From Hepatocystis sp. ex Piliocolobus tephrosceles (Eukaryota; Apicomplexa; Aconoidasida; Haemosporida; Plasmodiidae), in assembly GCA_902459845.2 (NCBI GenBank), contig CABPSV020000036.1:1-41683 (forward strand): a stretch of DNA of 41,683 nucleotides. The letters are read 5' to 3'. Positions 3,558 through 39,589 of this stretch are shown piece by piece (positions within the stretch are counted from its first letter, which is position 1; each line of letters opens with the position of its first letter). Under the pieces are notes generated by a model that saw nothing but the letters and a program-made list of their open reading frames with translations, was not told where the DNA came from and ran no database searches. The translations under genes and the position numbers were made by a program.

Positions 3558-3588
<31 letters not shown>

Positions 3589-8513: not shown

Positions 8514-10112
8514 GGCGCACGTATATATATTTATATATACATTAATAAGATAAAATCAAAAACCAATTAAAAAAATAAGGACAAAGCAAAAAAAACTATA
8601 ATATTTAAAAAAATAGTTTGAACAAATACAATTATTAAAAATACATTGTCATATGAATATATTATACGCGTATGTAGATATTATTATTTATATTTTCCTT
8701 TTTTTTTTTTTTTTTATTGTTACATAGTGTTGTTAAAAAGTTTTATTTGATAATGATCAGTGAAAATAATAGTTCAAATTTTTTTTTTTTTTTTTTTTGT
8801 TATAAATTATTAAAATAAAAAAAAAATTTGTTATTTGAAAAAAGTTGAGAGATATTTATAAAAAAAACAGTTATTGATTGATCTGTTAAATATATAAATA
8901 CATAAGTACTTTTTTTTTGTTGTTGCTTTTTATTGATTCTATTTCATTTGTTTGGATATATATATATATATATATACATGTATTTTTTCACAAGTACGTA
9001 GTTCTTCCGTGATATAGAACATTTGTATTTGTAAATTATTATGTGTTTTTCAATATAAATCATATATTATATTATTGCTGTATTTTTTTTGATTTTTTGA
9101 TCTTCTTTTTTTGTGTATGTATTCTTAAACTAGTTTATGTATATAATTATGCATGTGTATATGTATGATACCTAAAGTGAATGCATCACATATGTCTATT
9201 ATGGAATGTTATTAATACAAATATATTTATGTATGCATGTATTTATATAATTTTTATATATTGATTAGTGAATATTTTTTTTTTTTTTGGCATAATATTA
9301 TTTGTATATTTTTTTTTTTTTTTTTTTTTTTTTGACATTTTCACATATATGTATTTGTATATACATTTGATGCTTGTATGTTTAGATTTACTTAGATAAA
9401 TAACACATAACTGTTATTGAATTATAAAATAAAAATATAAATATAGTACATAATATTACACATAGTATATATACACATTCAATGTGTTTATTTAGATTAG
9501 CAAAAACCATCTTATTAATTAATTTTTTATAGCCATTTTTAACACAACAGCTGTGTATATATATATATATATACATTTCATTTATAATTACACACATAAC
9601 ACAAAAAAAAAAACATTTTTTTTTTTTTTTTTTCTTTGTTGTTGACCATAGAATCAAGAATATTATTTCTAAAATTTATTTTATTCTTTTAGGTTAAAAG
9701 TGAGAACATAAAAAATATTATAATTCTGCCCTTATTATAATTATAGTGAGTTTGACTCTACTAGCTTTTTTTTTTATTTCCTTTGAAAAAACATAAATAA
9801 TTTTTCTTTTTCTCAATTTAAAGGATTTCTTACATTTTTATTACTTTTTTTATTGTTATTTGACTCATTTTTTCTTTTTTATATATAACTATATATACAC
9901 TCTTGTTTATGTGATTCTTGCTTTCTATTTGATGAGCATATTTATTTCACAAAAGTTATTGTTTGTTTATTTGTTTGTTAGTTTTTTTGTTTGTTTTTTT
10001 GTTTGTTTTTTTGCATTTTATTTTTTTTTTTTTTTACGTTGCTTCATTTGTTTATCACATATCGTTACATTTTATCATAGTTTGTAATTTTTTTTATTTT
10101 AAAGAACACACA

Positions 10113-10356
10113 ATGTATACAAGTATCGAGGAAGCTAATAACCATTACAGTAATTACGTATTAAATAATTTAGTAGCCGAACAATCAAACCCAGTGTGTT
10201 TGATAAATGCGGATTGCACGAACAAAATAAAAGGAACTTCATGCAACCGCGATTATTGTAGTAGTAGTAACTTAAATACTACGAACATATATAATACTGT
10301 TATGTGTAACAAACCAATGGATATAAAATATAATAATACTAATAATAATAATAATA

Positions 10357-10387
<31 letters not shown>

Positions 10388-13210
10388 AAGTAATAATAAT
10401 AATAATAATCACGATGTAAATATGTGCAATAATTCCGTATTTGTTATTAATAAGTATAATTTAAACAACAAAAATTTAAATAATAATAGTAACGAATACA
10501 TAAACATAAATACTCCAGTGTGTAATAAAAATCCTATGCAAAATATGTACATCATAAACAACCATATGTCAACTTGTTGTCACAATTTAAATAACATGAC
10601 ATACTGTAACGGATATACCACAATAAATGGTATGTAAACATGAGTATATATAACAAATGCATGTGTTAGCATTTTTTACATAAAGTAGCATTGTGTATAA
10701 TTTGATGGTTTTATAAGTATATAAGTGTGTATATATGTGATAATTCTTTTGTGTACATCATATTTAGTGATAATTTAAATTTTTTTTTTTTTTTTTTTTT
10801 CAAATCCCATATTTTGCTTTACTTATTCAACATACTTTACTTATATAACCTATTTTGCTTATACTGATTCATTTTTTTTTTTTTTTTTTTTACCCCTTTT
10901 TCAGATAATAGCAAACTGAGCCAAAGCCAATATTTAAACATAAAGAAAAGTAAACTGATCAACAATTTAAATTTTTTTATGCGAGTCTGTTGTAATAAAA
11001 AATCGTACATAAACTTCATTAATCATTATTTTAACATAATATACAGTAAAGATATTAATATATTATTTAAGTATGAATGCATTTTGCAAAAATTTGTGTT
11101 TGAAAATGAACAGAATTTAACAGAAACTGATTATTATGATGCATATGTTAAATTAAACAAAATCCCCATTTTGATAAAAGATAACAGCTCATTTAATAAT
11201 ATGACATTTGATATAAATAATGATAACGTTGATAATAATAATGAAAATAATAATATGTACTTAATGAATAATAATAGTAACTTAAAAAGTAATGTATTAA
11301 GATTTATACAAGTATATGACAGTTTAACTGCTAATTTTTTTAAATATATATTCACAAAAATAAATAATGAGGAGATAAATATACATAGTTTTAATGTTGA
11401 TAATATAATACATAATTTTTTAAATAAAAAAAATTTATTAAAAGAAAATGTTTTTAATTTATTATTAAATATAAATAAAACTTATCAAATAAAATACAAT
11501 TCAGTTATTGGGGATATATTAAATGAAGAATATATAAAAGAAAAAAATGAAAAAATAATTTTTGAGATGTTAAAAAATAAAGTAGAACGTATGTCCAATT
11601 CATTAAATAAGGAAAACGAATTTAATATGTTTAATGAGGATAATAATAATGATATTAGCAATGACAGTAGTAATGACAGTAGTAATGACAGTAGTAATGA
11701 CAGTAGTAATGACAGTAGTAATGGCAGTAGTAATGATAGTAGTAATAATAGTAGTAATAATAGTAATAATCTTAGTAACAATTTTAGTAATAATCTTAGT
11801 AACAATTTTAGTAACAATTTTAATAACAATTTTAGTAATAATCTTAGTAACAATTTTAGTAACAATTTTAGTAACAATTTTAGTAACAATTTTAGTACAA
11901 ATAATCAAAATCCTCTGTATATAAATTGTATAAATTTAATTGATAACAATTTTTATGATTATAATTTAGGTACTAACTATTATAATGATGAAGCTGTAAT
12001 AAATGATGATAACATTAAAAACAATTCAAATGGGTATGAACATAACTGTACATATCATCATAACAGTAATGATATTATGAATGGAGAACATGTTAGTAAT
12101 AATGACATTAACAATAGTGGCGTTAATATTTTTAGCAATATAATAAATACTAATAAAAAAGAATTAAGCAAATCGTTTGATGAAAATAAACAGGAAAATA
12201 ATAAATTTGATTATAATTTTAATAATAAATTAAATATAGATAATGACTCAGATTTTGTACATAATTTTTATGACGTTAAAAATAGCAGAATATATAATAG
12301 TAACAAATCGGATACTACTACAGTTGGTATTTCAGATGATGCTTCTGTTCATACTACTATGATAGATGGTAGTGATTATTCACCATGTAGTGACACTTCT
12401 TGTAGTAAAAGATCACGTAATAACAAATCTCGTAGTAACACTCTTAGCACTCATATACCAAGTAATCATGCTCATTGTAAATATGACATAAACGAAGGAA
12501 ATTATTGGAAAAGGTCTATGTTGAATACATTTGAAACAATTTCAGATAATAATAGTGAAACAAATCATTCTGATATTACTATAACAACAGACACTATAAC
12601 AACAGACATTATAAACAATCATTATTTTTACAATGAAAATATAAAAAATCCTTGTATTTTTTTTAATAATACAAACAATATATTTAAAAAGAATATATAT
12701 GATGATGATATATGTGATAATGAATCTACTAACAGTAATAATACTTCTATTACTACTACAACAATAAATGAAAAAAATCAACAACAAGGAAACATTTTAG
12801 ATACTATGTATGAATTTTTAAAAAATAATACTTTTATACCTAATAATAATATTTACACAGATTTTGTAGAGAATGGTAATGATATTTTTTTAAATAAAAT
12901 TAAAAAAAGTGATAAAAATGCATATTATAAATTATTAGATAAATTTGATAGAATGTATAACATAATAAATGAGTTTAAAAGTATTATAATGCCAAACGAA
13001 AATATTCAAAATAATATAAATAATAAAAATGTAATGCACAGAAAATTAAGAAGAAGAACATTTATGAATGATGATTATACTACATTGAATTATAATCGTA
13101 ACGTTAATCATTCGAAACGAGGCTTAAAAGTAGCAAATAATAACAGTAGCGTGATAAATAAAACAGCAAAAAGAACAAGAAGGGTAGGTAGAGGCAGAAA
13201 GCGGGTGTGA
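10113..13210 (+). CDS. Asn-rich protein of unknown function, two exons, basic C-terminus
   Basis: Exon 1 is 10113-10629 and exon 2 is 10905-13210. The donor GTATGT and acceptor TTTCAG join with one base left over from exon 1 (a GAT codon across the junction), giving 940 residues. I do not recognise the protein. Non-repetitive parts are the N-terminus (about 1-70, with several cysteines), a segment at about 195-245 (RVCCNKKSYINFINHYF...), a helical-looking stretch at about 800-875, and a basic tail at about 885-940 ending in RRVGRGRKRV, which looks like a nuclear localisation or DNA-contacting tail. Asn runs lie at about 73-98, and a four-residue repeat (SNDS, then NNFS) at about 420-505. A Ser/Thr/Asp-rich low-complexity region follows. 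No signal peptide or membrane segment is seen. An upstream in-frame extension to 9963 is T-rich and rejected. The long upstream interval would fit a developmentally controlled gene, but that is inference. Confidence 0.85.
10330..10412 (+). repeat. AAT trinucleotide tract encoding poly-Asn
   Basis: AAT/AGT/AAA triplets encode an Asn run with scattered Ser, Thr and Lys within exon 1 of the Asn-rich gene. The phase-3 period agrees with coding sequence. Confidence 0.9.
11637..11905 (+). repeat. 12-bp tandem repeats encoding SNDS / NNFS
   Basis: A first block repeats AGTAATGACAGT (Ser-Asn-Asp-Ser) and a second repeats AACAATTTTAGT (Asn-Asn-Phe-Ser) with variants. The 12-base period keeps frame. 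Both strands and all frames are open here, which explains several long antisense frames that are not genes. Confidence 0.95.
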
Positions 13211-15206: not shown

Positions 15207-16352
15207 TCAAGAGACCCTCTTGAGCAACAACAGATAGATATCACTTATATTTTCCGAGTTGTAAGGATTGTTTATTTTTTTTATTTTATCATCATTGCAC
15301 TTGTAAAATCCATCACTATATTTAACAATGGCTGTATAATGGCCATTATAGCTATTACCGCTATGACATACAATACTTTCAATTATATATTTTGAGTTAT
15401 ATAATGATTCATGATTTGACATAAAAGCATATTGTGAAAAATCTACTAATCCATCTGGTGGTAATAAAACCATAGTATCAATTTTTTTTATTTTACTATT
15501 ATTATAATTACCAGATTCGAATATCCATTTAAATCTTTTTATATAAATAATTATATATATGTTTGGCATTCTGTATATACCTTTTTTAATACGACTTAGT
15601 TTTTTTAATTTACATTTTTCACATTCAAGATTAGAATAATCATCTTTTTTTACAATATTGTTTTTAAGTAAATCATTTAATGTAGTACTTTTTATATTTT
15701 CACTAGTAAACTCTAATCCTAAATCTAAACAAAATTCAAAACTATGCCTTGTATGTTCACAATTAGAACAAGTAATACTAGTAATGTTTTGAAAACCTAA
15801 TAAATCAGTTATTATACTATTATCTTTAAATAAATATTTAATCCAGTATTTGTCACTGGCTTTTTCTTTATTATCATTTTCATCTAATTTTATATCAAAA
15901 TTTTGTGGTATATTTATATCTCTACTACATTCAACATTTATATAATCGAATAATAAAAATAAAAACTCATGTGCATCATTTTGAGAGTTAACAATTAAAT
16001 TAGTATTATATTTTTTAATTTTTCTTAATATATTAATATGTTTATCTGTACATATTAAATTATCATCTGCACGATATGCTTCTTGAAAAAGGTCAAATAA
16101 GGATCTTAATATATCACCTTTATATTTAGATTTCGTTACCTGACATATTTTATCAAATTTTTTTAATACATAAATACAAAGTGGTTTTATTGATAAAACT
16201 AATTGTAATGACGCATTACAGTAACAAATATTACCATTATTGTTAAAAGAAATATGTTTTCTATTTATACTATCATAGTTATAATGTTTTGAATAATATT
16301 CATAGTTTTTTATGGGTAACACATTTAACAAGTTATTTTCTGTTATATTCAT
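15207..16352 (-). CDS. Ubiquitin-specific protease (USP family), single exon
   Basis: A 381-residue cysteine protease of peptidase family C19, which removes ubiquitin from substrates. The Cys box is GNICYCNASLQ with catalytic Cys43. A QNDAHEFL motif follows, then two CxxC pairs (CSNC and CEKC) typical of the zinc-binding fingers. The His box reads CHSGNSYNGHYTAIV with catalytic His338, then YKCNDDKI supplying the Asn/Asp (353/354). The chain ends just after the final YLLLLKR strand, so it is little more than a catalytic core. The motif order and the ND pair resemble the USP36/USP17 subgroup. There is no signal peptide or membrane segment. The first ATG is only about 40 residues before the catalytic Cys, as expected for a minimal USP. 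The gene converges with the Asn-rich gene. Substrates cannot be told from sequence. Confidence 0.95.
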   Translation of the reverse strand: MNITENNLLNVLPIKNYEYYSKHYNYDSINRKHISFNNNGNICYCNASLQLVLSIKPLCIYVLKKFDKICQVTKSKYKGDILRSLFDLFQEAYRADDNLICTDKHINILRKIKKYNTNLIVNSQNDAHEFLFLLFDYINVECSRDINIPQNFDIKLDENDNKEKASDKYWIKYLFKDNSIITDLLGFQNITSITCSNCEHTRHSFEFCLDLGLEFTSENIKSTTLNDLLKNNIVKKDDYSNLECEKCKLKKLSRIKKGIYRMPNIYIIIYIKRFKWIFESGNYNNSKIKKIDTMVLLPPDGLVDFSQYAFMSNHESLYNSKYIIESIVCHSGNSYNGHYTAIVKYSDGFYKCNDDKIKKINNPYNSENISDIYLLLLKRVS

Positions 16353-16481
16353 TTTATCTCAATGTTAAAAAAAAAAAAAAAAACCCTAAATAGAGTATGT
16401 AGTGTATATGTGTATATAATGACGAACATATATAAAAAAGGTACTATAAAAAGGTAGTATTAATGTATACAACAAATATGT

Positions 16482-18044: not shown

Positions 18045-21000
18045 TCAATTCCACAATGTTCCGGAAAATTTTTTAAAAATGATGTTTTCACTTTCAACAT
18101 AAAAAAGCTTAACTTTTTTGTACATCATTTTGTCAATAAATAAATTGTAACTTATCAAATTCGAAGTCTTATTTTTTTTTGCAAATGATTTATTATTTGT
18201 TGTATTATGAACATTTACAAATGAGTATTTGCATGTTTTTTCATTATTTTCTGAATAATCATCATCCGTTGTAAATTCTGCCTCTGAGCTTGTATCAAAA
18301 AAATAGCAACGTTTTTCTATTTTTTTTTTTTTTTTTACATATTTGTTTATATTTTTGTCTACAGTTATGTCAATATTTATAGCTTTATTTATGCTTTTAT
18401 TCATCCTTCGCTTTTTTCTGTTGGTCTTTAAACCATCATGTGATAAAAAATAATCAAAATCATTAATCAGCTTATAATTATTTTTAAATTTATACATTGC
18501 ACTTTTTTTTGACACAAACATTAATTTAAATGAAATAAACCCATCTTGACACATTGCTCTTAACAAAAAATTTAAATCGCAAAAATTTAATAGTTCAAGG
18601 CTTTTATATATCTGCAAAAAAAAAAAATAAAATAAAAGTGAGAAGGTAAAAATGGAAAGGTAAAAGTGGGAAAGTAAAAGTGGGAAAGTAAAAGTGATAC
18701 TATTAAAAAAAACATGCTACTTTTATTAAAAATGTAATATACACTGGTGTATTGGCATATTCGTATATAATTATGAACAAATGTTAAAACAGTAACATTA
18801 TTGTGCATTTAACATAGATGTAAGTATGTTTTTTTTTTTTTTTTTTAATAAAATTATGGCGAGAATAAAATGGAATTATGCGACATAATATGCAATAGGA
18901 TATATATAAATTATAAATTATATATATATATTTATTTATTTATTTATTAATTTTTTTTTTGCTTACATCAAAGATAGAAGAATACGGATTATTTTTCAAA
19001 TAAAAAAATATTTTCAAAATGTAAAAAAAAATAAATTTAACATTGGTATAACCATTTAAATATGTAAAGCTATTTGCATGAGTATAATTATCATTTATAT
19101 AGTATAGATTGATATTTTTTCGTATATGTGTATTTTTTTTTATTTTTTTTAAAAAATTGATTTCAAAATATTTGCTAGCTTTAATGATAACTTGTTTTAT
19201 ATATTTAATAACAAATGGGTATTTTTTTTTTTTCATATAATTTAATAATGTATTTCCTATTTTAGTGTTACATATGTTATTTGTATGTAAATTATTTACC
19301 CTATGTTTTGTTATTGTATTTTCATTATTTTTGTTTTCTTTGAAGGTGCTTATTTGTTTATAATTTTCAAGTAAATACATAAAAAAATAATCATGTATTA
19401 TGATAGAACATTGTATGTTATAGAGTAATATCAATTTGGGAATAAACTTAGGTTTTGCTAATGTGTTGTTGTTAATAAAGTTTATAAATACATAATCACC
19501 ATAATGTAACGTTTTTTTATTATATATAACTTGTTCTGTAACTGTTTTTTTATAGAAATGTTTTTGTGATGCGTGTTTATAATATTCATCTGGTCCGTTC
19601 TTTTGGTTGTCATTTGAGTTATTATTATTGTTATTATTATGATGGGTAATGGTGGTATTATTTTTATGTGTTACTATATTTTTTATGTTGTTCAAAAAAT
19701 TGTCAAACTTCTTGACACAACTAGTTGTATCCTTTTTAATTTGCAATTTATTATTTTTTAAATTATAATTAATCATATTTAAAAATGGGTGTTTGTAATT
19801 ATGTTCATAAAATAAATATCTCCTCTTATAAATATTATTATTATTGTAATATTGTGCTACAAATAATTTATGCGTGTTCATAAAACTTATTATTCTTATA
19901 AAATTTAATTTATTTAAACAAAACAGAATAAAATCGTATTCTTTTTTTACACGTACATATTCACTATAACATGCCCGTTTCAAAAAATTTTTTAAATATA
20001 TTTTTTTTAAAATATCAATAAAACAACCTTTTTTTTTTTTTTTTTTAATTAATAAAAATATAAATATCATTTTTTGAATAATTTTTTTAATAACAATTGA
20101 TTTCTTTTTTTTATTTGATTTGTTTAGTACATCATCTGTGTAGTTACCAAATTCATCATAACAGCTTAAAATGTCTTTGAAGTAAAAAACTTGATGCAGT
20201 ATTTGTATAACAGCGAAAAAGTTATTTTTATATATTTTAGTACAGTTTTCGTTATTATTATTATAATTACTACTACGACTGTTACTGTTATAATTTTTAA
20301 TTGTTATCTTTTTTATAAATTGTCTTGATTTTGTTTTACTTTTTTTTGCGTATCTTGTACTTGTTTCTATGTTCCCTTCTCTTTTTTGCATGGACTTTAC
20401 ATTTCTTTCCATTTGAATTTTTTTTTTGTTTATTTGGGATATGTTATTATTGTTCGTTGTTTTAGTTTGTTTATGTTTGTGGTTTATATTTTTTCGACTA
20501 CCTTTTTTTTTGTTTGCGACAAGTGTTACTACATCGTTTGCATTTTCTGTGGTAGTTTTATTTTTTCTTTTATCACATAGTAACCAATAAACTGTATTTT
20601 TCAAAATGGATACTTGAATATCCAACAAAGTGTCTATATATTTATTTTCATTCGAAATATAAGCAATATTATATAAATGTATATTTTGGGGATATATTTC
20701 AAAATCAATAAATGTTTTTTTATTTATGTTAAATATTAATAATTTATTTTTTTTATAAATAAATGAATTTGATTTGTCACTATTATTACTTTCATTATTA
20801 TATGCTTGTACATATTTATTAAAAATATAAGTAAAATTAATATTCGTGTTTTGTATATTCAACAAATCCAAGTTTTGTAACATAATTTTATTATTTTTAT
20901 TACATTTAAATAAATGATTTTGATAAATATATAAACAATATTTTTTTAGATAATTAAAATAACAATTATTTAGATCATTTGTACCATATTGTAACTGTTG

Positions 21001-24000
21001 CAAAAATAAATAATCATTATTGGTTGCTATTTGTTCATTTTTATCATCTAAAAAAATGTTAGAAAGTATTTTCGACATTTTTGTTTTTTCACAATTATTT
21101 AAAATATAATAATTAGGTACATATTCACTTACATGTTTAGTTAAACACTTTATATGCTTTTTTATTCCTCCTAATAATGTTTTTTTATCTTTCTTTGTGT
21201 TTTCTAATAATTGGATAATTTCATAATCATCCGAAAGATTGTCATTATAAACATCTGAATCGTTTGTACTTGATAATGTTGATGAGTCATAGTATATAGG
21301 TTTGTTACTATTTCGATAAACGTTCTTTATTGATTCTGGTACTTCTGTATTTGATTTTTTTTTTTTTTTTTTTTTTAACTTCGTATACGTGATATTGTTG
21401 TTTGATTTTTTAAACTGTGAATTTGGTTGAGATGGTACAGTACGTTTATTTTTACTACGTTTGTTAACACATGTTGTATCATTAGTAGTTGTATGTTCAC
21501 TACTACTATCATTATCCATACTACCAAAATCAATGTTGTCAATATCGGTAGTACTCGTATTCGTACTCGTATCAGTCAATACATAATTATTACATGCATA
21601 TAAGTTGATGTTTCCTCTTAAAAAATTATTAATATAATAGTTAAGATCAAAAATCGTTAGCTTTTTGTTAAAATAAAACATTTTACATTCTTTATTAGAA
21701 CAATCACTTGTATCATCATAATTGTTTAATAAGTTATTAATATTATTATTACTATTATAATCGTTATTGTGATATTCTACCATCTGTTTGTTATGTTTTT
21801 TAAAATTATTACCGTTTTGCATGAAGGTATAGTTACTTGAGTAATCTCCGTTATTATTTATATATTTATCGTTATACATGTAACTGTTTTTATTATTATT
21901 GTTATAGTCGTAATCGTTCTTATGTTCGTAATCAACATTGTCATAACAAGAAAAAGCATATTCATCAGTACCATGGTTATAATGTACATTGCTCATATAT
22001 TGTTCCTCATTATATAATACATCAATATGATGTAACAGTTTTCGTATATCATTATTTGCATAAATTGATTTTTTAAATGTACATTCACTGTTTCTTGCTT
22101 GGACTATTTTAGATTCTGCATAATGTACTCGATATAAATAAACGATATCGAAGACATTATTAAAAAGATATTTTTTAGTGAAAAACGATAATTTTTTTTT
22201 ATAAAAAATACCTTTATAAACTAAATTGGAATATATATTGTTGCATATTAAATTATTTGAAATATATTTTGAGTATAAATGAGAAACATCAACTAAATAG
22301 TTTCTTTTATTTATATATATCAAAGCTTTCTGTATATTATAAATTTTTTGCAAATATAAAGATTTAATAAGTTGTTTATATAACGTAAAACTATCTCCAA
22401 AATTTAATATAAATATTTTTAATAAATCAACTAATGATATAAATTCAAAATGATATATATTTTTCACACATTTATCATAATAATAATTTACATTTGTATA
22501 TGTACAATTATATATATGTGTTGGAAAATAATTTATTATACATCTAGCTAGGTTTTCATTTAATAATATAAAAAAGTAGTTAACAATATTGTTTTTAAAA
22601 TAAATAAATAATTTTTTTTTTATATACATACATATGTCCATCTGAAATTGGTTTATCAATATATTGTTCGCTTTAACCCATTCTTTTTTTTTATAAGGTG
22701 TATTATTAATTTTATTTTTTAATTCATACATTAAACGAAACTTGTTTAATTTGTTTTTTATAAAATCTTTTTTATTCAAAATGTTTTCCATAGAATAACA
22801 ATAATTCATATTATTTTTATATCGAGCTAGCAATTTTTTATTTGTAACCTTTGGTTCATACAAATTTATACATTCGAATGATTCCTTTTGTTTAAATGAT
22901 ATTTTTGTTTTTTTTCGAGCACATTCTTTGCTGCAGTTATTACAATTTGACGAGCGCTTTTTGGTAGCCTTCTTAAAATCTCGTTCAGTATTACCCATTC
23001 TACCCCCAATTTTATCTTGACTTTTATTTTTTTTTTCGATACAATTACACCTTTTGTTCCTATTCATTATGCATTCCTGCTGTTCTTTTGTTTGTAAAGC
23101 ATCATTGCCACTTTTTTTTTCTTTTTCTGCAAGTGTACTACTATTACTATAATATATATTTTTTGTTTGTTTGTTTGTTTTTTCTAATTTTTTTTGTGAC
23201 ATAAAAAGCTGCATAATGATCGCAATATGATACATATAAACAGTTCTTAAAGTATTTTTTATTTTGAACCTTCCTAAAAAATGTTTTATATGATTGTTGT
23301 TATGTTTTTTTGTATATAAGTTGTTGCATTTGGGTACATTATTGTCATGTACTAACATGGGATCCATTTCAATAAATTTTTTACTTTTTTTTAATTGATC
23401 ATCTAAATTGAACTCTTTACTATTTATATCATTTTTTTGTTGTTTTAAATACGATTTATCATATTGACTTTGTTCAAGTTGAACATTTTTTTGAAAGACG
23501 TTTTGGATACTACTCAGATGTACATGATCATCTACAAATTTAATATGCTTTTGTGTAACGGGATGAGAGTTTAACATGGATGATTTATTTATTACATTGT
23601 CTACACCGGTTATTAGTTTTTCATTCGTGTATGGCGTTTCTATTATTTTATTTTTCCAATTATTATTTGATTTTATTATATGTGGTATATTTTCCATTGT
23701 ATTTTTTATATTTAAAATATTACTTAAATTATTATGTTTTATATGCTTATTTTTTGAAAAAAAAAAAAACATATCAGAAACACTTTGATTTATATTATGA
23801 AAAATGGATATGTGACTTAACAACTCATTTTTGTAATGAAATATTTGAATACAGAAAGGACATGAAAAAGTTAAATTTTGATCAGATATATTAGTTATAT
23901 CATTATTATTATTTTTATTAAATATATCGTAATAAAAAGTAAAATATTTTTGTATATCTATTTTTGGAATATTATATTTATTATGTAATATATGATATTC

Positions 24001-25959
24001 TTTGTATGTTGTTAAATAATCTATAAGATTCGATTTATCTGTACTTATCTTTTCTATTTTTTTAGTTAATTTTAACAATAGGCTCCTTGTTTTTCTAGTT
24101 AAAAGTGTTTTATTAGTATAGCAATTATGTAATAAAAGAAAAAGTAAGCTTCTGTTGTTAACGTGGCAATTTTTCAATACATCTTGTAGTTTTAACCTTT
24201 TACCTTTGGCGTCTCTTACATCGGCTTCGTAAATATATGTTTTACAGCGTTCCACAGTTAACTAAACAAAAAAAAAAAAAAAAAAAATATATAATAAATA
24301 AAATAAAAATATAAAAAAAATAAAATAAAAATATAACATAAATAAAATAAAAATATAAAACAAATAAAATAAAAATATAAAAAAAATAAAATGTCTATAT
24401 GCAAAAATAGGAAAAATACTATGCTAAGTGTTGGTTGATACATATGAACAGCATTCTGTAAGGGAATAGGTCCCTTTAGGGTCATTTGTGTATAATTATT
24501 TCGTATTATATATATATATATATGTGTGTATATATGTATGTATGTATACATGTACAAATGTATTGTCATATATACATTATAATGCACATATAAACATTCA
24601 AAACAAAACAAGACCAGGATAACGGTACACATACATATATACCAAAAAAAAAAAAAAATAAAAATAAAAAAATAAACTTACATATAAATTGTAATAATAT
24701 TCCTCAAAATGATTGTATCTCATCATATTATAATATGTTGAATGTTTTTTTTTATAAGAAAATAAACAAATACTTAAATTTTTTTTAATATAAATTTTTA
24801 AATTTGGTTTTTTTAAATCGTTATAAGTTACAACTAAATTATTTTGTTTCAATATATTATAATCATTATTTTCTACATTAGAACAAAATTTTTTATTTTT
24901 TTTTTTATTATTGTCTTTGAACTTATATTGAATTGCGTTTATATAATGTAAAAATTTTAATATTTTGTATAATAAATAAAATATAGATATTTTTGGATAA
25001 TTTTTTAGTATATTTATATCTTCATTGCATAGAATGTTTTTTTTGGTATTACTATCGTCACAATTATTGTAACTTTCCTTTGATATAATTGTGTCACTGC
25101 TTTTGTCACAATCTTGCTGCTGACGTAGCATATTAGTAGCAGAATCAACATAAGAAGAATCTCTCTGTAAAAATAATTGATTTGATTGATTACACGAAAG
25201 TATTTTTTCTTTAATATGTTCATAATTATTATAATTATCAAAATATGTGTTTTTATTTTGATTTAAAATAAAATTTTCAATCAAATTTTGATTTTTACAA
25301 GTTAGTAAAGAATAAGATGTCAAAAATTCAAATAGCATTGGTGGAAGATGCTTCATTTTTAATTTCTTTCTCACATTAAATAGGTAATTTTCAATATAGT
25401 TAAGTTTAATTCCTATACTTATTAATTTTAAATAATCATTCAAATATAAATTTTTTAAGATATACTTTATGGTTAATGTATTAATGTGTTTTTTTTTTTT
25501 TTTTTTTTTTTTATTGGTTTGTTGAGTAAATGAAAACGTTCTTTTTTTAGAACGGATGCTTGCGTACTGCGCGTTTTGTGTGTTCGACATGTTGTTAATG
25601 TCATCCATGTTTGGTATAAAGTTATCACCATCATTATTAGTTCCTCCGTTATTACTAATAGAACTTTTCAACTTCTTTTTTTGAAGTTTCCTATTTTTTT
25701 CTTTTACCATTCTAATTAAACACTTGTGAAATAATTTATACCTTGTCATTCTTGTAAAAATATATCCATACAACAAATTTATTTTAAAATTAAAATCTTG
25801 TGACATATTATACTTTGGATAAAACTTATATTGTTTTTTCTTTTTCTTTATATGTATATTTTTATTATAAGTAAAAGCCGATTTTTTTAATATATCAACA
25901 TATAATATATTATATAGATCTATATTACTGTTTAAAGTGTTATCATCCATTAATATATA

Positions 25960-26008
<49 letters not shown>

Positions 26009-29000
26009 GTACTACTACTATTACTACTACATAATGCGCTTTTATTATTTACGTTGTTTACATCACTGCATTTATCATTTTGTTGTGTTTCTGACAACGG
26101 TTCAACCATTGCATCATCATTTTCATTCATTTTTTTATTTTTTTCATATGTATTACTAGATGTATTATATATATTTTGTGATACTTGTAATAAATTTGAT
26201 TGATAATTTTGTATACTATCATTTATTGTTGGAGATTGTTCTATTTTGTATTTTTTACTGAATGTGATAGAATTTGAGTTGCTAAAATTTTTCCTTTTAT
26301 TACTTTCTAAATTTAAAAATTTTTTAGATATGTTTTCATTATATAAAGTATTATTATTATTATTATTATTAATAGTACTATTGTTTTTAATGGTATAATT
26401 ATATGTAGTATTATTTTTTGTGATAGTATTGCTATATTCTTCTATTTTATTTAAATTACTATCTTTATTTTTGCAATTTTTTATATGTTTTGATAACTCT
26501 TTTGTACCATATTGTATCTTCAGTTGATTGTTAATACTATTTTTTGTTGTATGATTCATATTGATATGTGTAGAATGATTTTGTTTATGTATTTTGTGTA
26601 TTTTTTTGGAGTTAATTTTATTATGCATCGTTGTTTCTACAATGTTGACATTGTTAGTAATGGTTGACTTATGAGTAAGCGGATCATTTACATGATCATC
26701 ATATGCATCTGTATCGTGTTTTAATGTATTTGGAACAAAATTATCCATCGATATGTTATAACAATATTCTGTTATATTTTTATCTAATCTGTCACCACAA
26801 TTGTGCTTATAAAAAATTTGTCCATACTGTTGTTGATATGTTGCATGCAAATCTAATGACTGTTTCTCTGATAACATATTTGAATCGTAAAAAAAATATT
26901 TTATTATTTTATTGCTTGTCAGTTTATAGATCTTAAAAAAACTATTAATTTTTGCTGAATAATCAAAAAGACGTCTAATAGATTTTCGATCAATAACTTT
27001 ACCGTTGGATTCGATTGTAGAAAACAGATCTTGTATAAAACGAAAAGTCAATACTTTTGCACAAACAAGAAAATGAGTAAAAATAAATAATCTTTTGATA
27101 AACAAATTACTTTTTAATTTATTAGTATCTTCCATAAAATATTTAATAAAAGCAATATTACTTTGGGAATTTTTGGAATTTTTAACCTGAAATTCTTTTT
27201 TAACTATTTTATTGATTTCTTTTTTTTGTTGTTCATATAATATTTCTTCTTTTGATATATCATAGTTCAAATTTCTATCGTATAACAAATCTTTGTTTGT
27301 TTTTAATTGTTTTTGTATAAATTTTAAATAATAAAAAAAATGAAAACTACATGTATAAAAGTCATATTTGCTATCAAAATATTTAATTCTATTTACATAA
27401 TAATTAAAAAAATCTATAAAATTTGTGAAGTTGTAACAACAATCTTTATATGTAGGTATAACATAAATTAAAACATCTATATTTATTTTGTTCATAGTAT
27501 TTATATAATTAAGTATATTTATTGATTCGTTGAGATTTCTAAATTCTATGGGGATTACGTTTGCATTTGGATCTGTCGAGTTAACTAGCAGATTCTCCTT
27601 TTTTGCATCTAATAATTTGTTTGTGTTGTTTTGTTTTAAAAATTGTGTGTTATTATTACAAGCATTGATAGTATCGGAGGTATTAGCACTAGTACTAACC
27701 ATGGTATTGACATTGGTATTAGCATCATTATCTATATTAACGCCATTCCCATTTTCTATATCATATTTTTCTGAAAATGCATTTTCTTTAATATCGATTG
27801 TATTTTGTTTTTGTATCGTACTTACATCAAGTTCGTTATGATCCATATACTTGTTATGTTCTTGGGCTGTATTGTTACTCAGGTTGTTGTATTCTGTTTT
27901 ATCATTCTGTGATTTTATGTTAGGTGACACAAAATTGATACTTTTTTTTTGTATATACTGATAAATAAATTTGTGAATAAATCTAAACATGAAACGTTTA
28001 TCTTTCCTTTCCGGTATTTTAATAATATTATTATTTTTTACAATTTTTTGAAGATATATATTAGTTTTTTTTATTGAAAGCTGTAAAAAAATAGATATTT
28101 CTTTTGTTGTCATACCCGTTATGCCAGTACTAAGAATTAAGTATTCCATTATTTTGTATAAAGATAAGTTATTGACATAATTGTATTTTTCGTGATAATC
28201 TACATCGTCACGGTGGTTATCATTGTTTCCACGGTTGTCACTACTGTTATCGCTACTTTTGTTATTATCCCATTTGCTTTGTTTGTTACTATCACCGTCA
28301 CCTACACCACTATGATTGCTATTTACATAAGTACAATCCGAAATATGAGAAGATCCGTTTTTTTTATTTTCCCCTTTTGTATATACATTATGTTCACTAT
28401 TTTTTATGCTCAATTCATCATTTATATTATTATCAAAAACAAAAGAAAAGTCTGACATATTGGAACTTTCTTCATCATCGTTTTGTGAGCTTGAACAATA
28501 ATAATAATCATTATAATGTAGTTTTTTGTTTATATTTAAATCTACATACTTTTCGAATTCATTTGTCAACAAATTACATTTTTTATCATTTGCACTACTT
28601 GTTTTATCTATATCTTGTACATATGGTATTATTGTATCGTTAATTTGTATATCATTTGTTGATATAGGTAACAGATGATTATTTTCAGTTATCATTTCAC
28701 ATGTGGTATTATATAAAGTGTGGGTAATGTTTGTAACACTTTTATCGTTTACCATGTTGTCCTTCTTTTTAATATTTTCCATGTCATCCTTGATACTATT
28801 TTCACTTTGTTTTTTTTTAGAAAAATTTAACGCACTTTTTAAATTCGAGGATATGGACAATTCATCATAGATACTAGATGATATAAAAGAATTATTAATG
28901 TTGTTGTAGTTTTTAAATGGTATTTTTTTTACATAATCTTCACACATAAAATAACATGAGTTGTTAATAAAATTTATAAGGTGTTCATAATTGTAGTAAA

Positions 29001-30186
29001 ACAGAATTAAAAAATTAACTATACTGTCATAATTCATTTTATCTTTGTTTTCGTAATTTATATAACAAACTTCATAATTTGTGCTAATTTTTATTTTGCA
29101 CATACATATTGTTTTGTTACTTATTAAATTTAATAATACATTTTTAAAAAGTTTTAAAGCTTTTTTGATATGTACAAAATAATAGGGATTATAAAAAATT
29201 AATAATTTGAATAAAATTAATGACATAATTTTCTGCGGAATAATAATGAATTTATTTAAAAGAAAAAGTATTATTTTATTTATTGATAATACATTTTGTG
29301 AATATAAAATATTTTTAATAAATATTGGTAACAAATTATATATAAAATATATATTAAAATATAAAATGTATGATGAGTTTAATTTGATAGTGTTATTATT
29401 ATTATTATTATTAGGGTTATTACTATTATAGGAATTGTAATTACTAGAGCTATAATCAAGACTATTAGTATCGTTATTATAATTATTATTGTTATTACTA
29501 GTGCTATAATTAATAATGCCATTGGTATAGCTATCATTATTTGTTACGTTATTATGATAAGAAGTGATGTTAAGCATATTATTATACTTTACACCATTTC
29601 CTAAATTATTTATATTGATACTTATTTTTTTAATTAACAAATACTGATATAAAATTTTTAAATGATAATGTATCATCTTGACATCAATGTTAATATATTT
29701 TGATAAAGAACTTTGTAGTGAGCCATTATATCTATTAGAAACTAAGTATAATAAAATAAAAATTTTTTCTTTACATTCTTTTATTCTCTCATAATAAAAT
29801 AAATTGTATTTATTATATATATATACATTATTTATGGAAACATTGTATTGGTTAGCATGATTTAATATTAAATCGAATGTATTAATATTTATATTTATAT
29901 CTATGATGTTATTATATATATCCATTTTTTTGTTTTCTATCCCTTGCTTTATAATACATATATCTTTACAATAAAATATGTTTTCTAATACTTCCCTTTT
30001 CATATATATGTCCATATGTATATTTTTATTTCTTTCCAAATTGTCAAATAAATCTTGCAGTGATATTAAATAACTAACTTCTGTGTTATTATTGTTTTCT
30101 TGCCTCTTTTTATAATCATTTGCCGCTGCTTTATTGAAACTTGTGCACAGCTCATCAAACACATATTTCAGTAAAATTCTGTCCAT
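18045..30186 (-). CDS. GTF3C1: TFIIIC largest subunit (tau138/GTF3C1-like), giant multi-exon gene with C2H2 finger
   Basis: Exons on the minus strand are 30186-24682, 24261-18967 and 18611-18045. Donors are GTAAGT and GTAAGC, acceptors TTTAG and TTGCAG, all phase 0, giving 3,788 residues. The ATG follows an in-frame TAA. A B-block-binding winged helix lies at about 141-190 (YNGSLQSSL, MIHYHLKILYQYLLIKK). Further winged-helix-like segments follow at about 675-735 (GITGMTTKEISIFLQL) and 1029-1090 (IDRKSIRRLFDY). The C-terminal half of exon 1 (IFYLLYKILKFL, FEEYYYNLY) and the last exon (FYVESENIIF...LWN) also resemble human GTF3C1 by eye. A C2H2-like finger (CPFC...H-x4-H) lies at about 1969-1990. 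Long Asn, Lys and Ser/Asp inserts explain its size beside human (about 2,100) and yeast (about 1,160). TFIIIC binds the internal B box of tRNA genes and recruits TFIIIB for polymerase III. Exon 2 has no usable ATG before its finger, which argues against separate genes. Confidence 0.87.
18612..18966 (-). other. TFIIIC-like gene, last intron
   Basis: A 355-base intron with donor GTAAGC after TTTGAT and acceptor TTTTTTGCAG before ATATATAAAAGCC. It includes a small 14-base tandem repeat (GGGAAAGTAAAAGT on the plus strand, about 18650-18700). Splicing it in phase 0 joins PYSSIFD to IYKSLELLNF, giving a continuous winged-helix-like segment. Confidence 0.8.
24262..24681 (-). other. TFIIIC-like gene, first intron (420 bases, or two introns flanking a microexon)
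   Basis: Donor GTAAGT at 24681-24676; acceptor TTTAG ending at 24262, after a long T tract. Most of it is A/T simple sequence. A less A+T-rich patch at 24420-24490 contains a candidate 36-base microexon (see separate entry). It is too short and too intron-like to be an intergenic region between two genes on the same strand. Confidence 0.8.
24420..24455 (-). other. Candidate 36-nt microexon of the TFIIIC-like gene
   Basis: On the minus strand CCCTTACAG precedes, and GTATTT follows, a 36-base open stretch encoding NAVHMYQPTLSI. It is phase 0 on both sides, so it can be included or skipped without a frame change. In human GTF3C1, as I recall it, a short L-x-T-P-L-G-type segment follows the motif equivalent to FEEYYYNLY, which loosely fits QPTLSI. 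The donor is only moderate. Confidence 0.45.
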
Positions 30187-34065: not shown

Positions 34066-35406
34066 TTAATTCTTTTTTCTTCTTTTTTCACGATAATCGC
34101 TATGCGTATCGGTATACGTATCACTACTACTATCACTATAATTATTCTTATGTTTGTTCTTATAATTATCCTTATATTTATTAATATATATATTCTTATC
34201 ATTATCTTTATGGCTGTTTTTATATTTATTTCTGTCCATATTATTATCACTATATTTATATTTATCCATATGGTCATTTTTATAGGTATCCTTATTATCA
34301 TCTTTATATTTATCTCTATAACTATCTTTATATTTTTCTCTATGAATGTTTTTATATTTATCTTTTTGACTTTCCTCATATTTATCCATCTCACGTATAT
34401 GTTTGAATCGTTGTTTTTTGTTTCCGTTTATAATTTTATGGTTATTATGTTTGATTTCATTTGTTCGTTGACCTTGTTTTTTACTATCATCTGTGTCACT
34501 ACTTTCACTAGTGTTTTTATGTTTATGTTTTCCTTTGTTGTAATACTGTTCTTCTATATTATATATTTTTTCATATCTTTTTTGATTACTAATTTCTTTT
34601 TTTTTTTTATTTTTTTTTTCATTTCTTTTTTTTTCATGCTTTTTGTTTCTTGACCTTTCCATTTCTTCTTTTTCTGTTTCCGTTTCCGTTTCCATTTCCG
34701 TTTCCATTTCCGTTTCCGTTTCCGTTTCCGTTTCCGTTTCGTTTTCTGTTTTACTTTCCGATTCAGTGCTTGGATTCGTGTCAAATTTTTTCTTATGTTG
34801 TTTATATCCTTTTTCATTTACTTTTTTTTTTTTTTTTTCGTGTTCTAATTCATCCCTTTTATTTTTTCTTTCACTTATTGTCTCTTTTTTCATTTTTTTT
34901 TTATGTTTTTTTTTATGTCTTTCTCGTTCTGTTTCCCTATGTTTTTTCATTTTTTTTTTTTCATCCATATTTTCACTGCTTGAATAAGATGGTGATTTGT
35001 TCCGATTATTTTTTTCATGTATATTTTTCGATCTTTGCATATTTAATAGCCTCATTTTATCGCTTATTATTTTTTGTTGCTGTAATTCAAATTGTTTAAT
35101 AATAGTTAATGGATCTTCTCTTGATTTATTTAATAAATCTTTATTATCTTTGTAGGTATTATTTTCTTTCAGTGTTTCTTCTTCTTCTTCCTCAAGTAGT
35201 TTTTTCATATCAACATTTTTACCTAATAAAAATTCTTCTTGTTCTTTAACTTTTTTTTCTTCATTTGTTTCATACATCCATAAAATATCTTCATCTATTG
35301 TGTTATAATTGATATTATTTTTTGCTTTTTCTAGTTTCTGTTTTTTTTCTTCATATAGCTGACAAATTTTTCCATATTCTTCCATATCATTGTAAAGGTT
35401 CTCCAT
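34066..35406 (-). CDS. CWC25: Pre-mRNA-splicing factor CWC25
   Basis: A 446-residue, highly charged protein. Residues 1-35 (MENLYNDMEEYGKICQLYEE) align by eye with the second half of the CIR_N segment of CWC25. ILWMYETNEE...EEFLLGKNVD (41-66) matches the family motif LDWMY...EYLLGR.ID, and KSREDPLTIIKQFE (94-107) matches KIREDPLF.I+K+E. The rest is Lys/Arg/Glu-rich low complexity, including an ET-dipeptide run (about 221-245) and KYKD-like repeats (about 350-446). In yeast, Cwc25 joins the activated spliceosome in the nucleus and promotes the first transesterification. The usual start (DLNxKKSWHP) is missing. The frame stays open six codons upstream of the ATG to a possible acceptor at 35427-35428, so a 5' exon may exist. 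A phase-matched ATG exon at 35644-35575 is possible but lacks the expected motif. CWC25 shares a 1.1-kb upstream region with the RCC1 gene. Confidence 0.85.
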   Translation of the reverse strand: MENLYNDMEEYGKICQLYEEKKQKLEKAKNNINYNTIDEDILWMYETNEEKKVKEQEEFLLGKNVDMKKLLEEEEEETLKENNTYKDNKDLLNKSREDPLTIIKQFELQQQKIISDKMRLLNMQRSKNIHEKNNRNKSPSYSSSENMDEKKKMKKHRETERERHKKKHKKKMKKETISERKNKRDELEHEKKKKKVNEKGYKQHKKKFDTNPSTESESKTENETETETETETEMETEMETETETEKEEMERSRNKKHEKKRNEKKNKKKKEISNQKRYEKIYNIEEQYYNKGKHKHKNTSESSDTDDSKKQGQRTNEIKHNNHKIINGNKKQRFKHIREMDKYEESQKDKYKNIHREKYKDSYRDKYKDDNKDTYKNDHMDKYKYSDNNMDRNKYKNSHKDNDKNIYINKYKDNYKNKHKNNYSDSSSDTYTDTHSDYREKRRKKN

Positions 35407-36016
35407 TGTGTTCAGATAACAAAAATCTAATAATTAATTTTTTTTTACTTAAAATATATATAATCAAATAGACTAACGTAACATTAGTTGTTTTATATTA
35501 TTTTTCCCTTATTATTTTTCATGTGTTTTGGTTAAGTGTCCCTCTTTTCTTTTCTTCGTTCATTAATGTTTTACTAAAATTATTAATAATTCGTTCAATT
35601 ATATTTTGGTTGATTATTGTTTTTTGTCCATTATAAATGATCATTGTAATATTTTATTAGGAGAAAATTGTCTCAGAGTTTTTATTTTAGTATTATTAAT
35701 ATTTTAATAGCTTCATATTTTAAATGTTAAAAAACGGATTACTAAAGAAAATGTTATAAAAAATTAAAAAAAAAAAAAAAAGTTAAACATTACTATATGT
35801 GATATTAATATATATACTTACGTATATAAATATATATATTATTCATGTAAACATTTTTATAAAGTTTCATCAATTTTGTTTTTTAACGATAACTATTTTG
35901 AAAATATTAATTATTTATGATGGGAACAAACTATTCAATTCGTTATTTGTATATTTCATAACATTTAATATTTTTTTTTTTTTTTATTGTTTGTCGGTAA
36001 AAGCTATATGCTTTTT

Positions 36017-36433: not shown

Positions 36434-36494
36434 AAAAAAATATATATATATATATATTTATGTAATAAAATTAAAATAAGGCATAAACACAATA
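35407..36494. promoter_or_regulatory. Divergent promoter region, CWC25 and the RCC1-repeat gene
   Basis: About 1.1 kb between two head-to-head start codons. It includes poly(T) near 36020-36046, a poly(A) run of 30 at 36401-36430 just upstream of the RCC1-gene ATG, and a possible non-canonical first exon of CWC25 (35575-35644). No defined regulatory motif can be named. Confidence 0.5.
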
Positions 36495-38219
36495 ATGGTT
36501 CCCCGAGTTCCAATATGTGTTTCCCTTTTTTTAAAAAGTTACATTATATTTAAATGTAAAAAACAATTAACGTTTTGTGATAACAATAATAAAGCAGAAG
36601 AAAAGGTTTTTTTGTTAGGAGATGAACGTTGTTTAATTAAAGACACTAAACAAAATGGGGAATCACTGTTTTTTGAAAAGAATAAAATAAAAGCAAAAAA
36701 AATAACATTCGGAAATTGCATTGGAAGTTGTATAACTGAAAATAATGACGTATATATATGGGGTTCTTATGATAATGATGAAAAAAATGAAATAGTTTAT
36801 GTTAATCCGATAAAGTTAAATATTAATGAAATTTTTACTGATGTGCAGTTTTCGAACAATGATATATATTTAGTGAATGAAAATGGAGAATTAAAAATTA
36901 TAAAAAATTATAATGAATGTTTGAAAAATAAAAAGTTTATAATTGAAAAATTTTATAAATGTCAAAATTATTTTTCTTTCCCATTTTTTAGGGAAAAAAT
37001 AATAAAGTTAAGTGTAAATAAATTCCATTTAGCTTTTGTTACGAATAAAGGAAATATGTATTGTTCAGGTAACAATTTTTATGGACAATGTGCAAAAGAA
37101 CCTTTTCACAAAAACAATTTAAATATAAATTATAATTTTTTATATTCAAATTACTTAATGAATTCATTTAATATGATGAGTAATGTACATACGAAATGGT
37201 TGCAAGAGAATGTAAAATCAGAAACTGATTATGTTGAAGATACATATATATCTAAAGAATATAATCTTAATTCAGAAAATAACTCATATAATGAAATGAA
37301 TGAATACAGGGGGAATGAAACAGATAAAAGGAATTATAACTTATCCATTAATAATAATCATATGATAAAATTTAATAAAAGTGATATACATAACAACAAT
37401 GACACTATTACAAATTTGAATAATAAAAATGATAATATGGAAAAATATGATGATGATAAAAAAGATGAATATTTTACAATAAAGAATGGGACAGATTTAT
37501 TTTATAAGAATAATTATGTTTTTATGAATAAAGTACCATTTGAAAAAAAAACAAAAATTGTTGATGTTTCTTGTGGTTTAAATCATACATTATGTTTGGA
37601 TGATGAAAATAATATTTACAGTTTTGGAGATGATAGTAAAATACAATTGGGGTTAGGTGAAAGTAGAACAAATAAAAATTCTTTAGCAGGAACAAGGTGG
37701 AAAGATCAGTTAAAACATGGCTATTCAATTATTACAAAAAATTTGGCTAACTATTCTTTTTATGATAGGCACATACAAAGTAGTCCACAGATAATTTTAA
37801 AAAAATTAAATGATAAAGAAATAGTAGGTAATATATATAAAATTGTTGCTGGTGGAGAATTTTCTATAATATATTCAAACGACAAATTTGGTAAACAACT
37901 ATTTTGTTTTGGTGATAACATGTATAATCAATGTGGGAGACATTTAGGAAAACATCAACAAACATTATCTACTGTTAAATTATCGAATCACAAAATAAAT
38001 GATATTTCTTGTGGGGATAGGCATTGTTTATTGAATTTAAATGATCAATTATATGGATGGGGATATAACAATAAATACCAAATAACACCTTTTAAAAATA
38101 AAGGAATTATAAATAATCCAATATTTACATTATCTACGAAACATTACCCTAATAATGCTCATATCAAATATGTAAATGCGGTATATAATAATTCAGCTAT
38201 CATCATTACGCAAAAGTGA
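36495..38219 (+). CDS. RCC1-repeat (beta-propeller) protein
   Basis: A single exon of 574 residues. Several RCC1-type blades can be seen: ITENNDVYIWGS (about 80-95), AFVTNKGNMYCSGNNFYGQC (about 178-198), VSCGLNHTLCLDDENNIYSF (about 355-380), VAGGEFSII...LFCFGDNMYNQCG (about 453-485) and ISCGDRHCLLNLNDQLYGWG (about 505-527). The GxxHTL and L[YF].[FW]G pairs are diagnostic for the fold. A large Asn-rich insert (about 205-340) lies between the second and third visible blades. The N-terminus (MVPRVPICVSLFLKSYIIFK) is hydrophobic and basic with no acidic residue in its first 28 positions, so organelle targeting is possible, as in RCC1L-type mitochondrial proteins. RCC1 itself is a nuclear Ran exchange factor, but these divergent blades do not show that activity. 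The family is secure; the cellular role is not. Confidence 0.9.
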   Translation: MVPRVPICVSLFLKSYIIFKCKKQLTFCDNNNKAEEKVFLLGDERCLIKDTKQNGESLFFEKNKIKAKKITFGNCIGSCITENNDVYIWGSYDNDEKNEIVYVNPIKLNINEIFTDVQFSNNDIYLVNENGELKIIKNYNECLKNKKFIIEKFYKCQNYFSFPFFREKIIKLSVNKFHLAFVTNKGNMYCSGNNFYGQCAKEPFHKNNLNINYNFLYSNYLMNSFNMMSNVHTKWLQENVKSETDYVEDTYISKEYNLNSENNSYNEMNEYRGNETDKRNYNLSINNNHMIKFNKSDIHNNNDTITNLNNKNDNMEKYDDDKKDEYFTIKNGTDLFYKNNYVFMNKVPFEKKTKIVDVSCGLNHTLCLDDENNIYSFGDDSKIQLGLGESRTNKNSLAGTRWKDQLKHGYSIITKNLANYSFYDRHIQSSPQIILKKLNDKEIVGNIYKIVAGGEFSIIYSNDKFGKQLFCFGDNMYNQCGRHLGKHQQTLSTVKLSNHKINDISCGDRHCLLNLNDQLYGWGYNNKYQITPFKNKGIINNPIFTLSTKHYPNNAHIKYVNAVYNNSAIIITQK

Positions 38220-39054: not shown

Positions 39055-39066
39055 TCGGTACCGGCT

Positions 39067-39077
39067 GGGATCGAACC
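39067..39077 (-). promoter_or_regulatory. tRNA-Asn B box
   Basis: GGTTCGATCCC on the tRNA strand matches the GGTTCGANTCC B-box consensus. It is the site contacted by TFIIIC, whose largest subunit appears to be encoded at 18045-30186. Confidence 0.92.
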
Positions 39078-39110
39078 AACGACCTTGCGGTTAACAGCCG
39101 CACGCTCTAA

Positions 39111-39122
39111 CCAACTGAGCTA
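39111..39122 (-). promoter_or_regulatory. tRNA-Asn A box
   Basis: TAGCTCAGTTGG on the tRNA strand matches the A-box consensus TRGYNNARNNGG and spans the D arm. Confidence 0.92.
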
Positions 39123-39589
39123 CGGAACCTTGAATGTATAGAGAGCACATATAGATAATATTATAATTTTTTTTAATATATTATAAAAAAAAAAAATTAT
39201 ATGTTACGTTTAAAATATATATATTACGACATGATGATAATTTTTTTACTTTTCAGTATACCTTTAATAAAAAATATATACTTCATATATAGTAACATAT
39301 ATATCGTAGAAAAAAAAAAAAATAAAATAAACACTTACATTATGAAAGTATAAAAGTTGTACATGTAAATAAATATAAAAATGAATTTTTAAACATTCGA
39401 GCATTCGCTTTTTTCGTTTGATTGATTTATTCCTTTATACTTTTGTTTGTTCTCCATGTGTTCTTTTATGTTTTTTTATGCTTTTTTTTTTTTTTTTTAT
39501 AATATTTGTTTCATGTTTTTTTTAATATATTTTATAAGAGTAAGTCAAAATATTCATTAGTATTTGTAACAATTTTTTTTTTATTTTTT

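What the first reader, a model, noticed from the sequence alone, without database searches (positions are those of the whole stretch)
18045..30186. Full-length TFIIIC largest subunit (B-block-binding, GTF3C1/tau138-like) in a haemosporidian, about 3,790 residues
Seen: a B-block-type winged helix at residues about 141-190 (NRYNGSLQSSL ... MIHYHLKILYQ), two more winged-helix-like segments in the expected order, then IFYLLYKILKFL and FEEYYYNLY, then in exon 2 GCFIDILKKIY and KLFVAQ, and a C-terminus FYVESENIIF...LWN that matches the order of conserved blocks I recall in human GTF3C1. Known: TFIIIC's largest subunit contacts the tRNA-gene B box. Inference: this is the parasite orthologue, stretched by low-complexity inserts to nearly twice the human size. 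Divergence and inserts would hide it from ordinary similarity searches, so it may be annotated as unknown.
Basis: partly seen in the sequence, partly recalled or inferred. Interest (0 to 1): 0.85.

Follow-up and report, generated by a model that had tools for sequence, protein, structure and literature searches.

The report
Malaria-relative TFIIIC largest subunit gene
This looks like the gene for the giant DNA-reading subunit of TFIIIC, the factor that recognises tRNA genes, in a malaria-parasite relative; its Plasmodium counterparts are filed under other or no names, and they share an unexpected zinc finger in the middle.

Summary
The minus strand at 30186-18045 carries a three-exon gene of 3,788 codons; the first splice junction is ungapped against 14 of 14 Plasmodium proteins, the second against 12 of 14. 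Exon 1 holds a B-block_TFIIIC winged helix at residues 143-191, well over Pfam's cut-off, the only match found in the parasite's 12.4-Mb assembly. Fourteen Plasmodium orthologues (3,142-3,783 aa) carry it; none is called TFIIIC in the names shown. The assembly also has Tau95 and BRF1 over cut-off and a near-cut-off Tau55-type match. I read it as the TFIIIC largest subunit (tau138/GTF3C1). Only the N-terminal part is shown by profile; central and C-terminal blocks stay unconfirmed, since both AlphaFold models were poor and profile searches of PDB sequences gave no TFIIIC chain. New here: a C2H2 finger at residues 1969-1990, present in 15 of 15 proteins, not mentioned for this subunit in the human and yeast structure passages I read. 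A new member of a known kind with a small twist.

The parts
24682..30186 (-). exon 1, residues 1-1835: N-terminal winged helices and start of the middle region
   Evidence: open frame, donor GTAAGT, phase 0; junction ungapped against 14 of 14 orthologues
24262..24681 (-). intron 1
   Evidence: GTAAGT...TTTAG; exon-1 frame closes within it
18967..24261 (-). exon 2, residues 1836-3600
   Evidence: open frame
18612..18966 (-). intron 2
   Evidence: GTAAGC...TTGCAG; junction ungapped against 12 of 14 orthologues
18045..18611 (-). exon 3, residues 3601-3788 and stop codon
   Evidence: open frame; C-terminus conserved among Plasmodium orthologues
29803..30180 (-). WH1-like domain, residues 3-128
29614..29760 (-). 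B-block_TFIIIC winged helix (WH2), residues 143-191
   Evidence: PF04182 44.9 bits, E 1.2e-11, cut-off 22; only match found in the own assembly
27976..28158 (-). third winged helix, residues 677-737
   Evidence: below cut-off: TFIIE_beta E 8.5e-4, DUF7646 E 0.0035; DUF7646 matches 14 of 14 orthologues at E<=1, best 3.7e-6, and this is its only match in the own assembly at E<=10, though it also rings in 2 of 14 prokaryote controls; winged-helix rows for residues 670-728
23797..23862 (-). C2H2 zinc finger, residues 1969-1990 (C-x2-C-x12-H-x4-H)
   Evidence: pattern in 15 of 15 proteins, in 13 of 2,000 shuffles of this protein; Pfam zf-Di19 and zf-C2H2_4 below cut-off

Best explanation
The gene encodes the haemosporidian orthologue of the largest TFIIIC subunit (yeast tau138, human TFIIIC220/GTF3C1). 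Shown by profile: a B-block_TFIIIC winged helix near the N terminus of a very long protein conserved in Plasmodium, with no second such gene found in the assembly. Inferred: the N-terminal winged helices clamp the B box inside tRNA genes (the tau-B role), the long middle acts as a tether, and the C-terminal part binds the tau-A subunits (Tau95 and a Tau55-like protein are encoded in the same assembly), which then place BRF1-containing TFIIIB upstream so that RNA polymerase III starts. The C2H2 finger in the middle is an addition of unknown use, most simply an extra contact with DNA or a partner at the hinge between the two halves.
For: PF04182 over cut-off, only match found in the assembly, and no other family above its cut-off for residues 1-200. 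The order at the N-terminus fits: a winged helix at 1-124 directly before the B-block domain, as WH1 then WH2 in human (1-163, 175-247) and yeast (1-97, 108-172) (PMC11811891 and PMC11724288, passages). 14 of 14 orthologues match PF04182 and, weakly, DUF7646. Tau95 over cut-off with two Pfam models on one contig, BRF1 over cut-off, TFIIIC_sub6 22.3 bits against a cut-off of 22.7. An Eimeria maxima protein list names a B-block-binding TFIIIC subunit, so the family is annotated in another apicomplexan (PMC5885459, passage).
Against: Only one domain is over a curated cut-off, and that model also matches 4 of 14 prokaryote control genomes, so alone it does not prove TFIIIC. Against PDB sequences, exon 1 alone, a whole-family profile and four profiles of parts gave no TFIIIC chain, although yeast tau138 is in that library (found with a consensus recalled from memory). 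Foldseek gave no match at E<=0.001, and no TFIIIC chain is among its 50 listed rows. In the structure comparison the TFIIIC220 row is outranked by unrelated winged helices. TFIIIC_delta, zf-TFIIIC and the Bdp1 Myb model were not found in the assembly, though nothing rang in the controls either.
Confidence: 0.88

Rival explanations
1. A large nuclear protein that merely contains a B-block-like winged helix and a zinc finger, for example a chromatin or regulatory protein, not part of TFIIIC.
For: UniRef names 12 of 14 orthologues after a C2H2-type domain; the PF04182 model rings in 4 of 14 prokaryotic control genomes; middle and C-terminal blocks have no confirmed TFIIIC match.
Against: The assembly has Tau95 and BRF1, so a B-box-binding partner is expected, and no other PF04182 gene was found in it; winged helix then B-block at the N terminus and great length fit tau138.
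Confidence: 0.1
2. Two genes wrongly joined: an N-terminal B-block protein and a separate downstream zinc-finger protein.
For: The two long frames are separated by a 420-base interval and the B-block and finger sit in different exons.
Against: 14 of 14 annotated Plasmodium proteins run through the first junction without a gap, with the FEEYYYNLY|LTVER surroundings kept, and the intron ends are canonical.
Confidence: 0.02

Closest known systems
Human TFIIIC220 (GTF3C1) and yeast tau138 (TFC3)
   Same: N-terminal winged helix followed by the B-block winged helix, a further winged helix downstream, very long chain; Tau95 and BRF1 encoded in the same assembly.
   Different: 3,788 aa against 2,109 and 1,161 (lengths from PMC11811891 passages); one conserved C2H2 finger. 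In PMC11811891 the two uses of 'zinc' shown concern fingers of TFIIIC90, and PMC11724288 has none; PMC10781861 in contrast says that human Tau138 contains a zinc finger (passage), which I could not trace further.
Plasmodium proteins P0004-P0017, named hypothetical, uncharacterized or unknown (e.g. PCYB_031100, PCOAH_00006190)
   Same: Orthologues: 43.0-46.8% identity over 2,897-3,397 aligned positions, same B-block domain and finger.
   Different: Length 3,142-3,783 aa; some models look mis-annotated (P0004 lacks the C-terminus, P0005 has an extra stretch at junction 2).
Trypanosomatid four-subunit TFIIIC (Tau95, Tau55, Tau131, Tau138)
   Same: A protozoan-parasite TFIIIC with a Tau138; that paper suggests Tau60 and Tau91 are absent (PMC10781861, passages), and I found no Tau60-type model here.
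   Different: There partners of Tau95 were identified by mass spectrometry (passages); here sequence only, Tau131 not found or tested properly, and absence of Tau60 not established.
Archaeal B-block proteins
   Same: Same small winged-helix unit (abstract of PMC3945056).
   Different: About 100 aa (same abstract) against 3,788 aa.

Membership tests
TFIIIC largest subunit (tau138/GTF3C1) | B-block_TFIIIC winged helix near the N terminus | tested here: met
   PF04182, residues 143-191, 44.9 bits over cut-off 22
TFIIIC largest subunit (tau138/GTF3C1) | WH1 domain before the B-block domain | tested here: inconclusive
TFIIIC largest subunit (tau138/GTF3C1) | further winged helices WH3, WH4 and extended WH | tested here: inconclusive
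   one more winged helix at 670-737; others not resolved, mean pLDDT 33.3; profiles of 114-425, 1005-1120 and 1460-1760 gave no TFIIIC chain
TFIIIC largest subunit (tau138/GTF3C1) | C-terminal tau-A module with homeobox-like domain and WH5-8 | tested here: inconclusive
   model of residues 2340-3534 had mean pLDDT 31.1; C-terminal profile gave no PDB match
TFIIIC largest subunit (tau138/GTF3C1) | length over 1,000 residues (PMC3945056 abstract) | tested here: met
   3,788 aa
TFIIIC largest subunit (tau138/GTF3C1) | partner TFIIIC/TFIIIB subunits in the same genome | tested here: met
   Tau95 and BRF1 over cut-off; TFIIIC_sub6 just under; TFIIIC_delta, zf-TFIIIC, Bdp1 Myb not found
TFIIIC largest subunit (tau138/GTF3C1) | binds the B box and co-purifies with TFIIIC | not testable with these tools
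   needs experiment
C2H2 zinc-finger transcription factor (the UniRef label) | recognised C2H2 domain(s), usually in arrays | tested here: inconclusive
   one pattern match per protein, in 15 of 15; zinc-finger models below cut-off for the window protein and for P0013, the one orthologue whose full table was shown
Archaeal-type small B-block protein | about 100 residues | tested here: not met
   3,788 aa

The most novel reading that the evidence does not exclude
Haemosporidians run a reduced TFIIIC (Tau138, Tau95, Tau55-like, without recognisable Tau60) in which the largest subunit has gained a C2H2 finger in the tether between its B-box-reading and TFIIIB-placing halves, giving it an extra nucleic-acid or partner contact, perhaps at 5S or other non-tRNA Pol III genes.
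Probability: 0.15. Interest if true: 0.6.

Novelty: new member of a known kind. Interest (0 to 1): 0.35.

Why it matters
The likely B-box reader of malaria parasites appears in the databases seen here only as an unknown or C2H2 protein (14 of 14 names). In P. falciparum, RUF6 non-coding RNA genes carry A and B boxes, RUF6 and tRNA transcription falls with a Pol III inhibitor, and RUF6 is tied to var gene expression (PMC11208047, passages). Naming the subunit that should read those boxes makes the first step of Pol III recruitment in these parasites testable. I saw no paper on a Plasmodium TFIIIC subunit in the lists (25 of 38 listed; 6 of 6; 15 of 166; 15 of 208; 2 of 2; 3 of 3; 15 of 6,476) tells nothing, and the library lacks most subscription journals.

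Tried and rejected
AlphaFold of residues 1-1195 (15-row alignment) and of residues 2340-3534 (14 rows): mean pLDDT 33.3 and 31.1, of no use beyond residues 1-124 and, weakly, 670-728. I did not search with the second model.

PDB sequence searches: exon 1 alone gave one chance match, E 4.1; the family profile, residues 114-425 and the C-terminus 3562-3650 gave nothing at E<=1, 10 and 10; the 1005-1120 profile and the 1460-1760 profile gave only matches that I read as chance: an N-glycosidase at E 0.28 and 13 neurotoxin rows at E 1.1-1.7; designed leucine-rich repeats, best E 3.8e-4 but with no single stretch passing, and CCDC47 at 0.79. (39 rows) ranked yeast tau138 first and listed no human TFIIIC220. 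Foldseek on model 1: 498 matches at E<=10, none at E<=0.001, best 0.53, no TFIIIC in the 50 rows listed.

Homologue searches returned Plasmodium only (in some only 7,994 and 7,980 candidates sharing most words were scored): no Toxoplasma, Eimeria, Babesia or P. falciparum protein was listed, so I cannot say whether the finger is older than haemosporidians; the word filter and length window may be the reason. A TPR_16 search for a Tau131 lead found 0 matches here but rang in 14 of 14 controls; since other TPR models match a frame of this window, I do not read that as absence. A zf-C2H2 search for a TFIIIA-like protein found one weak match (E 0.5); the model is too short for a conclusion. One search (12 of 192 papers listed) showed no study of Plasmodium C2H2 proteins.

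Full report
Gene model. The minus strand holds three long frames. Joined at canonical splice sites they give 3,788 codons and one terminal stop: exon 1 30186-24682, exon 2 24261-18967, exon 3 18611-18045. Against 14 Plasmodium proteins the first junction is ungapped in 14 of 14 and the second in 12 of 14; P0005 has an extra stretch there and P0004 stops short.

Homology. Pfam gives one confident family on the three frames: B-block_TFIIIC, 39.3 bits, E 7e-10, cut-off 22; on residues 1-200 alone 44.9 bits. It is the only match found in the 12.4-Mb, 611-contig assembly. A protein search returned 14 Plasmodium orthologues of 3,142-3,783 aa, 14 of 14 with precomputed PF04182 and 0 of 14 called TFIIIC in the names shown; 12 of 14 carry a UniRef 'C2H2-type' name, one is 'Uncharacterized', one shows no UniRef name. 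The window protein is 43.0-46.8% identical to each, about equally far from all, so the organism is probably a haemosporidian outside the sampled Plasmodium species; I did not identify it further.

Zinc finger. Residues 1969-1990 read C-x2-C-x12-H-x4-H. The pattern occurs once in each of 15 of 15 proteins and in 13 of 2,000 shuffles of the window protein; the two cysteines and two histidines are invariant in the 14-orthologue alignment. Zinc-finger models score below cut-off on the window protein. The finger lies between the N-terminal block and the C-terminal blocks, in what would be the tether between the tau-B and tau-A halves if the assignment holds. The passages read on human and yeast TFIIIC do not describe such a finger in this subunit, but PMC10781861 states in passing that human Tau138 has a zinc finger.

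Partners. The same assembly has Tau95 with both of its Pfam models on contig C63 (E 8.8e-29 and 5.7e-15), BRF1 (E 1.5e-17) and a TFIIIC_sub6 match at 22.3 bits against a cut-off of 22.7 in a frame that reads plausibly as Tau55-like by eye. TFIIIC_delta, zf-TFIIIC and the Bdp1 Myb model gave nothing, nor did they ring in the prokaryotic controls, so absence is not shown. A tRNA-Asn gene with A-box-like TAGCTCAGTTGG and B-box-like GGTTCGATCCC lies 8.9 kb from the gene's start (the box consensus is recalled).

Mechanism. By homology the N-terminal winged helices bind the B box and the rest tethers tau-A, which places TFIIIB. Shown here: the B-block domain, conservation, partners in the genome. 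Inferred: DNA contact, complex membership, tether. Literature: a B-block-binding TFIIIC subunit is named in an Eimeria protein list (passage). The paper lists I saw (several capped, see Why it matters) showed no study of a Plasmodium TFIIIC subunit. In three Plasmodium papers that mention TFIIIC the word stood in the reference list only.

Verdict. A correct identification, in all likelihood, of an ordinary gene that databases leave unnamed; the twist is the conserved finger. Interest 0.35.

Noticed in passing
window 39056-39129 (-): tRNA-Asn (GTT) gene with A- and B-box-like sequences, 8.9 kb upstream of the TFIIIC gene.
   Followed up: partly
window 1066-2613 (+), 15207-16358 (-), 34066-35433 (-), 36480-38219 (+): Neighbouring frames match a HAT-repeat splicing factor (Syf1/CRNKL1 type), a ubiquitin hydrolase, CWC25 and an RCC1-repeat protein.
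   Followed up: no
window 9936-10637 and 10868-13210 (+): Two long frames (233 and 780 aa) without a Pfam match at E<=0.01.
   Followed up: no
L003 1366-2304 (-) (assembly contig C342): 312-aa frame with a just-below-cut-off TFIIIC_sub6 match; a plausible Tau55-like subunit.
   Followed up: partly
P0004, P0005, P0011 (database proteins): Gene models that look imperfect: the P. cynomolgi protein lacks the C-terminus, P. coatneyi has an extra stretch at the second junction, P. brasilianum lacks a block conserved in the other rows shown, near window residues 1571-1605.
   Followed up: no
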